Shown here: one piece after another, positions 14,002 through 17,268 of the stretch
How positions within the stretch are numbered: the first letter of the stretch is position 1
How the letters are laid out: each line of letters opens with the position of its first letter
From: Klebsiella sp. RHBSTW-00484
GTDB taxonomy: Bacteria; Pseudomonadota; Gammaproteobacteria; Enterobacterales; Enterobacteriaceae
Length of the DNA stretch: 64,000 bases
Reading direction: 5' to 3'
Assembly (NCBI RefSeq): GCF_013705725.1
Contig: NZ_CP055481.1
Span: forward strand, 2,232,001 to 2,296,000
Program-made: the position numbers and the translations under genes
Notes under the pieces: generated by a model
The model's database searches: none
Told to the model about the DNA's origin: nothing
The model's input: the letters and a program-made list of their open reading frames with translations, nothing else

Positions 14002-15006
14002 TTACGCCTTGTAATACGCCTTGTACCAGTCAACGAAGTTCTTAACTCCTTGCTTGACCGAGGTTTGCGGCCTGAATCCCACCATATCATACAGCGGCTT
14101 AGTATCAGCGCTGGTTTCAAGTACATCGCCTGGCTGAATCGGCATCATATTCTTCTCGGCGACCATTCCCAGAGCATCTTCCAGTGCAGTGATATAATCC
14201 ATCAGTTCAACTGGTGAGCTATTACCGATGTTGTATACCCGGTAGGGCGCTGAACTATCAGCAGGTGAACCTGTTTCGACGGTCCATTCAGGGTTAGGTT
14301 GCGGGATAATATCCTGCATCCGCACAATGGCCTCAACGATATCGTCAATGTAGGTGAAGTCGCGCTTCATCTTCCCGTAGTTGTATACATCAATGCTCTT
14401 TCCTTCCAGCATGGCCTTTGTGAACTTGAAGAGCGCCATATCCGGTCGGCCCCATGGACCATAGACGGTAAAGAACCTTAGTCCTGTCGTCGGGATACCG
14501 TACAGGTGAGAGTAGGTATGGGCCATCAGTTCATTGGCTTTCTTCGTCGCCGCATAGAGAGAAACCGGATGGTCAACCGAATCGTCGGTTGAGAACGGCA
14601 TCTTGCGGTTTAAACCATAGACTGAACTGGATGAGGCGTAGAGCAGGTGCTCAACTTTATTATGTCGGCAACCTTCCAGAATGTTCAGATAACCAATCAG
14701 GTTCGAATCAGCGTAAGCGAACGGATTTTCCAGGGAATAACGTACACCTGCCTGGGCGGCGAGATGGATCACTCGATTAAACTTCTCACTAGCGAAAAGT
14801 TGAGCCATACCTTCACGATCGGCCAGATCAATTTTGTGAAAACTGAACAGGGGAAATTGCAGTAAGTCCAGGCGAGACTGTTTAAGATTGACGTCGTAGT
14901 AGTCGTTCATATTGTCGATACCGACAACCTCATGACCCGCCTCCAGAAGGCGCTTACACGCATGAAAACCGATGAATCCTGCGGCTCCAGTCACTAAAAA
15001 CTTCAT
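14002..15006 (-). CDS. uge: UDP-glucuronate 4-epimerase (UDP-galacturonate forming)
   Basis: Extended short-chain dehydrogenase that interconverts UDP-glucuronate and UDP-galacturonate, supplying galacturonate to Klebsiella capsule and LPS core. 334 residues, full length. Features: N-terminal GAAGFIGFHACKRLLEAGHEV (GxxGxxG NAD motif), GIDNMNDYYDVNLK, the SSSSVYG Ser and the catalytic SLYAATKKANE Tyr-x3-Lys. ATG at 15006 follows GGAGGATAAAT. It lies opposite to ugd and is separately terminated. In Klebsiella uge normally borders the O-antigen locus, but here the next features are a gene remnant and an insertion sequence. Confidence 0.93.
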   Translation of the reverse strand: MKFLVTGAAGFIGFHACKRLLEAGHEVVGIDNMNDYYDVNLKQSRLDLLQFPLFSFHKIDLADREGMAQLFASEKFNRVIHLAAQAGVRYSLENPFAYADSNLIGYLNILEGCRHNKVEHLLYASSSSVYGLNRKMPFSTDDSVDHPVSLYAATKKANELMAHTYSHLYGIPTTGLRFFTVYGPWGRPDMALFKFTKAMLEGKSIDVYNYGKMKRDFTYIDDIVEAIVRMQDIIPQPNPEWTVETGSPADSSAPYRVYNIGNSSPVELMDYITALEDALGMVAEKNMMPIQPGDVLETSADTKPLYDMVGFRPQTSVKQGVKNFVDWYKAYYKA

Positions 15007-15509
15007 ATTTATCCTCCGGGTTCACGTTGCCCCGCTACATATAATTGCCGATTTTACACTGGCTTGCTGTGTGGATCACCTGCTTTACCGCTACGGTCGG
15101 TAAGTCTTTGAAAGATTGTATAATGTTATACCTACAAAATAAATCTTGAGGACGGCCAGGAATTAGTATAATAGGCGTTTAAGTAACTTCTGGTGTTGAC
15201 GAAGTCAGGACTAAAACTGAAAGGAGATGTCGGGTGCAGAAAACGGTGAGTAGAGGAATACAGCGCAATGATTTCCTATAGATATTTGTATCTGCCAGGA
15301 GGTATTTCTCTGGTTCAGTAAATAGAGTAATGCTTTGTTACGACGAACAGTTTTGTTGTTATATACAATTGTTTGATGGCTTCAATTAAAGTTATACAAT
15401 TGTCTATGTGTCAACAGGCTATTTTTTCAAGGCTTGCCTATTTTAACTGTTGAAATGATATTGTTAAAAATAAGAACTTATTTTGTTTAAATTATATATG
15501 AGTGAGAAT
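15007..15509. other. Intergenic stretch upstream of uge
   Basis: Five hundred bases, becoming AT-rich away from uge. It probably contains the uge promoter near its 5' end, but no strong -35/-10 pair was found. No RfaH ops/JUMPstart sequence of the kind that precedes polysaccharide operons was seen. Only very short ORFs without family signature are present. Confidence 0.4.
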
Positions 15510-15789
15510 TTATTTTTTTAATATTGCTAATTGTTGTTCAATTTTGCTGATGCGTTCATCAAGTGCTAGCAGATCATTAATTTTTTTGCCATTGATGTAA
15601 ACATCGCCATTAATATAGATTCCGTTATTGTTATCCACAGCTAAAATCTCTTTAGTATTATCATTTGTTACGATACGTGTTCCTCCTTGGCCGTTACGAA
15701 TGGAAATCCAGTTTTGCTTGTTAGCTGCGTTATCCCAACGTGTACCACCATAAATCTCACCTGACTTACCGCCATTGAGGATAATACCT
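15510..15789 (-). pseudogene. 3' remnant of a gene cut by the IS903-type element
   Basis: The reverse-strand frame stays open from the insertion-sequence edge (15789) to a TAA at 15510, giving 93 codons without a start. It encodes a Gly/Asn-rich segment (GIILNGGKSGEIYGGTRWDN, WISIRNGQGGTRIVTNDN, NNGIYINGDVYINGKKIN) and ends in a heptad-like helix (LLALDERISKIEQQLAILKK). That architecture, beta-structure followed by a short coiled coil, resembles C-termini of trimeric fibre or surface proteins. The 5' part is not found on the other side of the insertion sequence. I do not recognise the family. The AT-rich codon use suggests imported DNA. Confidence 0.6.
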
Positions 15790-16845
15790 GGCTTTGTTGA
15801 ATAAATAAGATTTCTTGCGAACGACCCTGTAGCTGGCTGGATTTTCAGGCAATACGCACGCTTTCTGGCATCCCAGCCTTTGTCATCCTGTTCAACGCAC
15901 GCACCATGGCCATAGCTTCCGCTACCTGACCATCGTAGTCACGCAGCGTCAGTGAATCTCCCAACAACTGCTTCATTCTGTACATTGCCGTTTCCGCTAT
16001 CGAGCGACGGTTATATTCCGTTGTCCATTTCCACCGTGCATTGCTTCCGCTCAGCCGCTGATTAGCAACGGCACGGTTGCGGTCTGCGTACTCACCGGGC
16101 CAGTAACCTGCTCCTTTTCGGGGAGGAATAAGCGCGCTGATTTTTTTGCGGCGCAGTTCATCGTGACAGAGCCGGGTATCGTAAGCCCCGTCTGCCGCGG
16201 CTGCCCTGATTTTTCTGTGAGTCTGCCGGATAAGGCCCGGGAAGGCTTCTGAGTCCGTGACGTTATTCAGCGACAGGTCTGCACAGACAACTTCATGTGT
16301 GTTGCTGTCAACAGCAAGATGCAACTTTCGCCAGATACGACGGCGCTCTTTGCCGTGCTTTCTGACTTTCCATTCGCCTTCACCAAAGACCTTCAGCCCG
16401 GTGGAATCAATCACCAGGTGTGCGATTTCACCCCGGGTGGACGTTTTGAAACTGACATTAACCGACTTTGCCCGCTTACTGACACTGGTGTAATCCGGGC
16501 AGCGCAACGGAACGTTCATCAGGGCAAAAATGGAATCAATAAAACCCTGCGCAGCCCGCAGGGTCAGCCGGAATACGCGTTTAATCACCAGAACGGTGGT
16601 GATGGCGAGATCAGAATAGCGCTGGGGCCTTCCTCGTGATGAAGGTGTTGCCGACTCATACCAGGCCTGAATCGCCTCATCATCCAGCCAGAAAGTGAGG
16701 GAGCCACGGTTGATGAGAGCTTTGTTGTAGGTGGACCAGTTGGTGATTCTGAACTTTTGCTTTGCCACGGAATGGTCTGTGTTGTCGGGAGGATGCGTGA
16801 TCTGATCCTTCAACTCAGCAAAAGTTCGATTTATTCAACAAAGCC
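15790..16845 (-). mobile_element. IS903-type insertion sequence (IS5 family), complete, no target duplication
   Basis: A 1056-bp element with 18-bp terminal inverted repeats: GGCTTTGTTGAATAAATA at 15790 and GATTTATTCAACAAAGCC ending at 16845, differing only at the innermost base. Size and ends match IS903. The expected 9-bp target duplication is absent: the left flank is ATAATACCT and the right flank GTGGTTATT. One side has therefore been replaced by a later deletion or recombination. The element lies where Klebsiella carries the O-antigen locus. Confidence 0.92.
15845..16813 (-). CDS. IS903-type transposase (IS5 family, DDE)
   Basis: A 322-residue DDE transposase filling the element. Recognisable segments are FRITNWSTYNKALINRGSLT at the N-terminus, VIDSTGLKVFGEGEWKVRKH (first catalytic Asp), AADGAYDTRLCHDELRRKK (second Asp) and the C-terminal YNRRSIAETAMYRMKQLLG (catalytic Glu in the Y-(2)R-(3)E-(6)K signature of IS4/IS5 families). 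No frameshift is visible, so the element may still be active. Confidence 0.95.
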   Translation of the reverse strand: MKDQITHPPDNTDHSVAKQKFRITNWSTYNKALINRGSLTFWLDDEAIQAWYESATPSSRGRPQRYSDLAITTVLVIKRVFRLTLRAAQGFIDSIFALMNVPLRCPDYTSVSKRAKSVNVSFKTSTRGEIAHLVIDSTGLKVFGEGEWKVRKHGKERRRIWRKLHLAVDSNTHEVVCADLSLNNVTDSEAFPGLIRQTHRKIRAAAADGAYDTRLCHDELRRKKISALIPPRKGAGYWPGEYADRNRAVANQRLSGSNARWKWTTEYNRRSIAETAMYRMKQLLGDSLTLRDYDGQVAEAMAMVRALNRMTKAGMPESVRIA

Positions 16846-17268
16846 GTGGTTATTGATAATCATTATCAAATGAATTCATCTTTATTCATAGCTGCAGTAA
16901 ATGAATTTATCCTTTACATGCTGCGATAATTATATTCTTTTAATCACATATTGCCAGTCTGGTAAAAGCTATGAGATATTTTTTCTGATATGTTACTCAA
17001 CAGAGTGGTTTAACATTTCCGTTTACAGATTTATGGGATTTATCTTAGGGGGAGATTTGACCACTGCGCGGCTTTCTGGAATCAGACTATCATTTTTGTT
17101 ATGTATATAATTTTAGTCAATGGCTTTTCAGGCCGTCATGGCCTTCCGCCGTATTGACGTGTGAGGATTATTTGATGTTGTTGATTGTCTAAGAGAATGG
17201 TCAACCTGTTGTGATGCATATTTTTTGCAGTGAGGCCCAGCTATCCAGGCCCCAGTTATGTGAAGTCT
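16846..17268. other. Intergenic stretch between IS903-type element and hisI
   Basis: About 420 AT-rich bases with no gene-length ORF. The one clear motif is a Fur-box-like palindrome at 16854-16868. Elsewhere there are only short ORFs (up to 69 codons, 16901-17110) without signature or ribosome-binding site. The his operon terminator is expected near 17200-17270, but only weak hairpins are seen. Confidence 0.4.
16854..16868. promoter_or_regulatory. Fur-box-like 7-1-7 palindrome
   Basis: TGATAATCATTATCA is a perfect 7-1-7 inverted repeat equal to the core of the Fur consensus (GATAATGATAATCATTATC). It starts 9 bases beyond the right end of the IS903-type element. No intact gene with a start codon stands near enough to be its target, so it may be the orphaned operator of a lost gene. 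This is a motif match only. Confidence 0.4.

What the first reader, a model, noticed from the sequence alone, without database searches (positions are those of the whole stretch)
15006..17268. Expected O-antigen (rfb) locus absent between uge and hisI
In Klebsiella the O-antigen operon (wzm, wzt and glycosyltransferases) lies between the uge/ugd end of the capsule region and hisI. Here that interval is 2.3 kb and holds only a 93-codon 3' gene remnant, an intact IS903-type element and an orphan Fur-like palindrome. The element lacks its 9-bp target duplication, which is the usual scar of an adjacent deletion or recombination. The strain may be O-antigen-negative, or its O locus may lie elsewhere.
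Basis: partly seen in the sequence, partly recalled or inferred. Interest (0 to 1): 0.72.

Follow-up and report, generated by a model that had tools for sequence, protein, structure and literature searches.

The report
Klebsiella chromosome without its O-antigen locus
In this Klebsiella chromosome the genes for the outer sugar chain of the surface lipopolysaccharide are missing from their usual place, where a jumping gene now sits, and the gene that would attach that chain is broken beside a second jumping gene, so the strain probably makes short, 'rough' lipopolysaccharide; this is a known kind of loss, here unusually complete.

Summary
Between uge and hisI lie 2,262 bp: a 93-codon gene remnant, an intact 1,056-bp IS903-type element without target duplication, and AT-rich DNA. 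The interval could be measured in 18 of 19 same-genus relatives; it is 5.5-15.2 kb, and 17 of those 18 hold wzm/wzt there. The ops/JUMPstart-like element present in all 18 is missing here. A Wzm profile matches 18 of 19 relatives but nothing in this genome, so an ABC-type locus has not simply moved.

New: a second lesion. In the LPS core cluster an IS5-type element stands where relatives G017 and G011 have about 1.25 kb, leaving 131 of 421 codons of waaL, the O-antigen ligase gene, and 234 of 356 of the next glycosyltransferase. The capsule locus appears present. The remnant matches the 3' end of a gene seen in E. coli prophages.

Best reading: IS903-associated loss of rfb, giving an O-negative strain with probably rough LPS. 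IS-driven O-antigen loss is well documented; novelty is low. Mechanism and order of events are inferred, same-species strains were not available, and the LPS is untested.

The parts
14002..15006 (-). uge, UDP-sugar 4-epimerase gene; left border of the interval
15007..15089 (.). upstream DNA of uge shared with G017; conserved sequence ends at 15089
   Evidence: blastn against 20 loci from 19 relatives
15090..15509 (.). AT-rich DNA without a convincing gene; no relative found beyond short AT-rich matches
15510..15789 (-). 93-codon 3' remnant of a gene whose relative in E. coli phage-like DNA encodes 372 aa, cut by the IS
   Evidence: 79.5% aa identity over 88 residues in an E. coli phage-like plasmid; 75% DNA identity in 6 of 5426 E. 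coli genomes; context viewed in 2 of those 6 and in the plasmid; only this piece in G000
15790..16845 (-). intact IS903-type element, 322-aa IS5-family transposase at 15845-16813, no 9-bp target duplication
   Evidence: 99.9% identical copies on plasmids
16846..17281 (.). AT-rich DNA without a convincing gene; no relative found beyond very short matches; DNA shared with G017 resumes at 17282, just inside the 3' end of hisI
16855..16867 (.). orphan Fur-box-like palindrome GATAATCATTATC
   Evidence: read; the name Fur box is recalled; 23-bp exact matches around it in two other genomes
17269..17865 (-). hisI (hisIE), right border of the interval
   Evidence: ORF; annotated as hisIE in E. coli homologues; 99.3% DNA identity to G017
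6..9773 (+). distal part of the capsule (K) locus: EpsG-family (polymerase-like) protein 542-1681, Wzx-like flippase 4647-6170, glycosyltransferases, glf-like 8664-9773; upstream of the window lie wzi-, wza-, wzb- and wzc-like genes
   Evidence: ORFs; Pfam for the EpsG, flippase and wzc proteins; other names by reading the translations
10000..12817 (+). gnd (10000-11406) and ugd (11651-12817), separating the capsule locus from uge
   Evidence: ORFs; 6PGD Pfam; ugd named by reading the translation

Best explanation
The interval is the scar of a lost O-antigen (rfb) locus. An ABC-transporter-type O locus with its ops/JUMPstart leader once lay between uge and hisI, as in nearly all relatives. A rearrangement involving IS903 removed it: most likely an IS903 adjacent (replicative, intramolecular) deletion or recombination between two directly repeated IS903 copies, leaving one intact IS with unmatched flanks. 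The IS also cut a phage-type gene that had entered the locus. With no Wzm found in the genome, and with the core-cluster ligase gene waaL truncated beside an IS5-type element, the cell should make core-only (rough) LPS under a capsule. Shown: absence of locus, Wzm and leader; an intact IS903 without duplication; a truncated waaL beside IS5. Inferred: that a locus was present in the ancestor, that IS903 and IS5 caused the losses, the order of events, that the capsule is made, and the LPS phenotype.
For: Interval 2.26 kb against 5.5-15.2 kb in 18 of 18 measurable relatives; wzm and wzt inside it in 17 of those 18. Wzm profile from 11 relatives: 18 of 19 relatives match at E 8.2e-88 or better, this genome 0 matches; 7 of the 18 were not in the profile. 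A single Wzm query was also empty here. Best match to a Wzt query is 35% over 217 aa, read as a generic ABC protein (150 of 170 candidates scored). The 37-base ops/JUMPstart-like element scores 31-37 of 37 in all 18 relatives with an assembled interval, 18 of 37 here, 40 shuffles mean 19.2; the capsule locus has an 11-of-12 match to the ops core (12 of 200 shuffles had one too). IS903 lacks its duplication. waaL: 131 of 421 codons left, 1,247 bp of G017 absent with IS5 in its place. A second IS903 copy sits where relative G010 has 9.1 kb more, again without a duplication. Passages seen in PMC11708052: adjacent deletions are common for IS903 and are a frequent cause of missing duplications.
Against: No remnant of an O-locus gene was recognised: 15090-15509 and 16846-17281 match none of the O loci held here, so replacement by foreign DNA rather than plain deletion is possible. 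Same-species genomes could not be compared, so ancestral presence rests on other species of the genus. G001 lacks wzm/wzt at this site. G006 also lacks a Wzm match, though its interval is not assembled. A second, distant ligase-family protein (420 aa) is intact elsewhere, so ligation is not proven lost. No positive control was run for the Wzt search. The 9.1-kb difference at IS903 copy 2 rests on one relative; in G005 only one side was found in the stretches fetched. Phenotype untested.
Confidence: 0.78

Rival explanations
1. Replacement, not deletion: recombination or insertion of foreign, phage-derived DNA swapped out the O locus between the conserved borders at 15089 and 17282, and IS903 came in or rearranged the insert later. 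(The outcome, an O-negative strain, is the same as in the best explanation, so the two odds overlap.)
For: Both unmatched stretches (15090-15789 and 16846-17281) are AT-rich (34.6% and 36.5% GC, window 50.1%) and were not found in the relatives; the remnant resembles a gene of E. coli prophages; the borders lie about where O-locus types diverge between relatives.
Against: No integrase-like or other phage gene was recognised in the interval; the tail gene next to this gene in the E. coli prophage is not matched; only the 93-codon piece matches.
Confidence: 0.3
2. The O antigen is made from another place, by a relocated locus or by the galF-gnd cluster, so the strain is smooth.
For: G001 has no wzm/wzt in the interval and a wzm about 58 kb away, so another layout exists in the genus; a second intact ligase-family protein exists.
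Against: No Wzm match in the genome (28 contigs); only two Wzz-domain proteins, one being the capsule wzc; galF-gnd carries wzi-, wza-, wzb- and wzc-like genes, the capsule type; core-cluster waaL truncated. A Wzx/Wzy O locus elsewhere was not searched for directly with Wzx or Wzy.
Confidence: 0.08
3. Assembly artefact: the repeat IS903 let the assembler skip an O locus.
For: Two near-identical IS903 copies lie about 38 kb apart and the assembly has 28 contigs.
Against: The 6.33-Mb contig runs through; the unmatched DNA beside the IS has a single place in the genome; a skipped locus should appear on another contig, yet no Wzm is found in any. Reads were not available.
Confidence: 0.04
4. The species as a whole lacks this O locus, so nothing was lost in this strain.
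For: No other genome of the species was available here; one of 18 measurable relatives (G001) also lacks wzm/wzt at the site.
Against: The nearest relative held (98-99% in uge and hisI) has a wzm/wzt locus there; PMC9400251 reports an O locus in all its K. oxytoca-group isolates (passage seen; whether this genome belongs to that group was not determined).
Confidence: 0.12

Closest known systems
Insertion-sequence inactivation of the Klebsiella pneumoniae rfb locus (PMC7556023, PMC12077207; passages seen)
   Same: IS elements disrupt O-antigen genes (PMC12077207 names an IS903 in wbbN); three evolved isolates there show no O ladder; [quoted passage not shown]
   Different: Here no gene of the locus remains and the leader is gone, rather than one gene interrupted, and the ligase gene is truncated too.
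IS903 adjacent deletion (PMC11708052, passages seen; it cites Weinert, Schaus and Grindley 1983, not read)
   Same: Intact IS, no target duplication, neighbouring DNA missing.
   Different: Pre-deletion sequence unknown, so recombination between two IS copies cannot be told apart.
O-antigen loss in Escherichia coli K-12 (PMC10578602, abstract seen)
   Same: O-antigen production lost by independent mutations, possibly by selection against lipid-linked intermediates.
   Different: That is a Wzx/Wzy pathway (recalled); here the expected one is the ABC-transporter pathway in a Klebsiella with a capsule locus.
waaL mutant of K. pneumoniae B5055 (PMC9431683, passages seen)
   Same: Ligase loss removes the LPS ladder and reduces capsule retention.
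   Different: Laboratory mutant that still makes O antigen; here natural and with rfb absent.

Membership tests
Klebsiella ABC-type O-antigen (rfb) locus | wzm and wzt between uge and hisI | tested here: not met
   Absent from the interval; no Wzm in the genome; present in 17 of 18 measurable relatives
Klebsiella ABC-type O-antigen (rfb) locus | ops/JUMPstart-like leader upstream of the first gene | tested here: not met
   18 of 37 here, chance level; 31-37 of 37 in 18 relatives with an assembled interval
IS903 (IS5 family) | about 1.06 kb with 18-bp terminal inverted repeats (recalled) | tested here: met
   1,056 bp, 17 of 18 matching
IS903 (IS5 family) | IS5-family transposase | tested here: met
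   NF033579, 354.2 bits against cut-off 140
IS903 (IS5 family) | 9-bp target duplication of a simple insertion (recalled) | tested here: not met
   Flanks agree at 3 of 9
IS903 adjacent deletion | intact IS, one new flank, neighbouring DNA lost | tested here: inconclusive
   IS intact and O locus absent, but the ancestral junction is not known
IS903 adjacent deletion | no partner copy that would explain the flanks by recombination | tested here: inconclusive
   The one other near-identical copy found (40 of 44 candidates scored) does not carry the flanks; a lost partner cannot be excluded
O-antigen-negative (rough) strain | no LPS ladder | not testable with these tools
   Needs an LPS gel
O-antigen-negative (rough) strain | core-cluster ligase waaL broken | tested here: met
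   131 of 421 codons left beside IS5; a distant second ligase-family protein is intact

The most novel reading that the evidence does not exclude
A natural O-null Klebsiella with a capsule locus, produced in two steps by two different ISs: truncation of waaL made unligated O polymer on the lipid carrier costly, and deletion of the whole rfb locus by IS903 was then selected as a suppressor, so the genome records a ligase-first order of O-antigen loss.
Probability: 0.2. Interest if true: 0.5.

Novelty: new member of a known kind. Interest (0 to 1): 0.33.

Why it matters
O antigen is a target of Klebsiella vaccines, antibodies, phages and O typing. A strain with no O locus would be untypeable by O locus and would be missed by O-directed tools. 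PMC9400251 reports an O locus in all of its K. oxytoca-group isolates (counts given out of 92; passage), and 17 of 18 measurable relatives here have one at the usual site, so a complete loss looks uncommon. The paired loss of locus and ligase in a strain that keeps a capsule locus makes the questions of which is lost first, and how capsule is held without O antigen, open to direct comparison in sister strains.

Tried and rejected
Inversion between the two IS903 copies: with inverted copies the flanks should pair as reverse complements; the best pairing is 5 of 9. Third IS903 copy: the 18-base end occurs at five places, but only two near-identical full copies were found. Source of the unmatched flanks: short AT-rich hits only (up to about 95 bases) in 392 family genomes (the tallies of 27 and 8 genomes include this one); in E. 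coli only the remnant matched; none in phages; as 21 translated peptides against 177 held loci the best E was 0.052. The remnant got no usable family name: Pfam only far below cut-off, PHROGs E 0.05. The second ligase-family protein as a gene newly gained by this strain: rejected, since its DNA is at the same place in G017 (87.9%) and, for the part within the fetched stretch, in G005 (93.5%). Wzx or Wzy were not searched for in the whole genome. Papers came from nine searches, of which only the listings and the passages or abstracts named were looked at; no title listed described a complete rfb loss of this form. Odds are as first drafted; mending changed wording and counts only.
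Full report
What is there. The interval between uge (14002-15006, minus) and hisI (17269-17865, minus) is 2,262 bp. It holds a 93-codon gene 3' end on the minus strand, an intact IS903-type element at 15790-16845, and AT-rich DNA on both sides (15090-15789 34.6% GC, 16846-17281 36.5%, window 50.1%). The flanking 9-mers of the IS do not match each other.

Comparison with the genus. Twenty genomes of the genus are held, this one (G000) and 19 relatives. The interval could be measured in 18 of 19 relatives and is 5.5 to 15.2 kb; in G006 it is not assembled, uge and hisI lying on different contigs. 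tblastn with Wzm and Wzt queries finds both in the interval in 17 of 18. The exception, G001, has rmlB-, rmlA- and wecB-like genes and a glycosyltransferase there (names by reading the translations) and its wzm about 58 kb away. The closest relative, G017 (98.4% in uge, 99.3% in hisI), has a mannan-type locus: manC-, manB-, wzm- and wzt-like genes and glycosyltransferases (names by reading). Homology with G017 stops at window 15089 and resumes at 17282.

Is the O locus elsewhere? A Wzm profile from 11 relatives matched 18 of 20 genomes, all at E 8.2e-88 or better; 7 of the 18 were not in the profile. G000 and G006 had none. A single Wzm query was also empty in G000. A Wzt query gave 148 matches to ABC proteins (150 of 170 candidates scored), best 35% over 217 aa, E 6.1e-19, in a frame with a stop inside; I read these as generic ABC proteins, and ran no positive control for Wzt in other genomes. 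Wzz-domain proteins number two: wzc of the capsule locus and one 355-aa frame at C1:6057201, probably wzzE (recalled). So no ABC-type locus was found, and nothing suggests a Wzy-type O locus with its own Wzz; Wzx and Wzy themselves were not searched for.

The leader is missing too. A 37-base element containing GGCGGTAGCGTG (ops/JUMPstart by recall) lies in the interval of all 18 relatives where it is assembled, at 31-37 of 37 matches, G001 included. In the window interval the best match is 18 of 37; 40 shuffles averaged 19.2. Upstream of wzi the capsule locus of G000 has an 11-of-12 match to the core of this element (12 of 200 shuffles of that stretch also had one).

A second lesion in the same pathway. 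The ligase family (PF04932) rings twice in G000. One is a 145-aa frame in the LPS core (waa) cluster, below the family cut-off. There an IS5-type element (C1:186038-187232, 1,195 bp; CTAG on both sides) stands where G017 has 1,247 bp of other DNA and G011 about 1,250 bp. What remains is 131 of 421 codons of the ligase gene, waaL, and 234 of 356 of the neighbouring glycosyltransferase; in G017 and G011 both genes are open. The matching CTAG flanks fit insertion after a deletion, or recombination between two IS5 copies at like targets; at least seven copies at 100% identity, this one included, are in the genome (15 of 78 candidates scored). The other ligase-family protein (420 aa, 25% identical to G017's WaaL) lies far off beside a glycosyltransferase; its DNA is at the same place in G017 and, as far as the fetched stretch reaches, in G005. 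So it is not a gene newly gained here, and its role is unknown.

The remnant. The 93 codons are 79.5% identical over 88 residues to the C-terminus of a 372-aa protein with a signal-peptide-like start (my reading), encoded in an E. coli phage-like plasmid, and match 6 of 5426 E. coli genomes at 75% DNA identity. In the two of those six that I viewed, and in the plasmid, the gene lies next to holin genes. Of the 20 genus genomes only G000 has any match, and only this piece. The 372-aa protein has 188 relatives in the protein database; among the best 120 listed, those with a legible name are hypothetical or uncharacterised. So, I infer, a phage-type gene had entered the locus before the IS cut it; the neighbouring DNA of the E. 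coli prophages is not matched here.

The IS903 elements. Copy 2 (C1:2208582-2209637; opposite orientation, 3 mismatches) cuts an ABC permease gene after about 90 codons; relative G010 has 9.1 kb more at that point and a 230-aa permease. In G005 only the right side was found within the stretches fetched. Copy 2 also lacks a duplication (2 of 9). Two IS903 copies without duplications, with DNA missing beside them relative to relatives, fit adjacent deletions, which PMC11708052 calls common for IS903 (passage seen). No pairing of the four flanks supports inversion between the copies. Deletion by recombination between two direct copies leaves the same picture and cannot be excluded.

How it most likely works. 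With no O-polymer exporter found and a truncated core-cluster ligase, the LPS should end at the core. In K. pneumoniae B5055 waaL loss removes the LPS ladder and lowers capsule retention (PMC9431683, passages), and IS insertions in rfb, an IS903 among them, arose during mouse gut colonisation (PMC12077207, passages). Why both steps were lost is inference: once one is gone the other is useless, or unligated polymer on the lipid carrier is costly and rfb loss relieves it, in the way argued for E. coli K-12 (PMC10578602, abstract).

Limits. No second genome of the same species was available, the LPS was not examined, the completeness of the capsule locus was not tested gene by gene, and the pre-deletion sequence is unknown. 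Results against a simple deletion are that neither unmatched flank resembles any O locus held here, that G001 has no wzm/wzt at the site, and that G006 has no Wzm match.

Noticed in passing
G000:C1:186038-187232 (L168:4038-5232): IS5-type element in the LPS core cluster, beside a truncated waaL (131 of 421 codons left) and a truncated glycosyltransferase gene (234 of 356).
   Followed up: yes
G000:C1:2208582-2209637 (L089:13582-14637): Second IS903 copy cuts an ABC permease gene; relative G010 has 9.1 kb more here with transporter-, regulator- and symporter-like genes (names by reading).
   Followed up: partly
L137 (G001), uge-hisI interval: 5.5-kb interval with rml-like genes and no wzm/wzt; its wzm lies about 58 kb away, a different layout within the genus.
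   Followed up: partly
L167:8469-10630: Family-2-like glycosyltransferase next to a 420-aa O-antigen-ligase-family protein outside the waa cluster, DNA conserved in G017 and at least in part in G005; function unknown.
   Followed up: partly
L142:12002-13120: 372-aa protein gene with signal-peptide-like start, on the opposite strand between tail and holin genes of an E. coli prophage; no Pfam family above cut-off and no PHROGs match; 188 database relatives. Possibly a cargo gene.
   Followed up: partly
window 12818-14001: 1.2-kb AT-rich stretch without a long gene between ugd and uge, shared with G017 from 13139 on.
   Followed up: no
L134 (G013):1208-2206: A second uge-like copy (75.5% identical to the window's uge) in opposite orientation near uge in this relative.
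   Followed up: no
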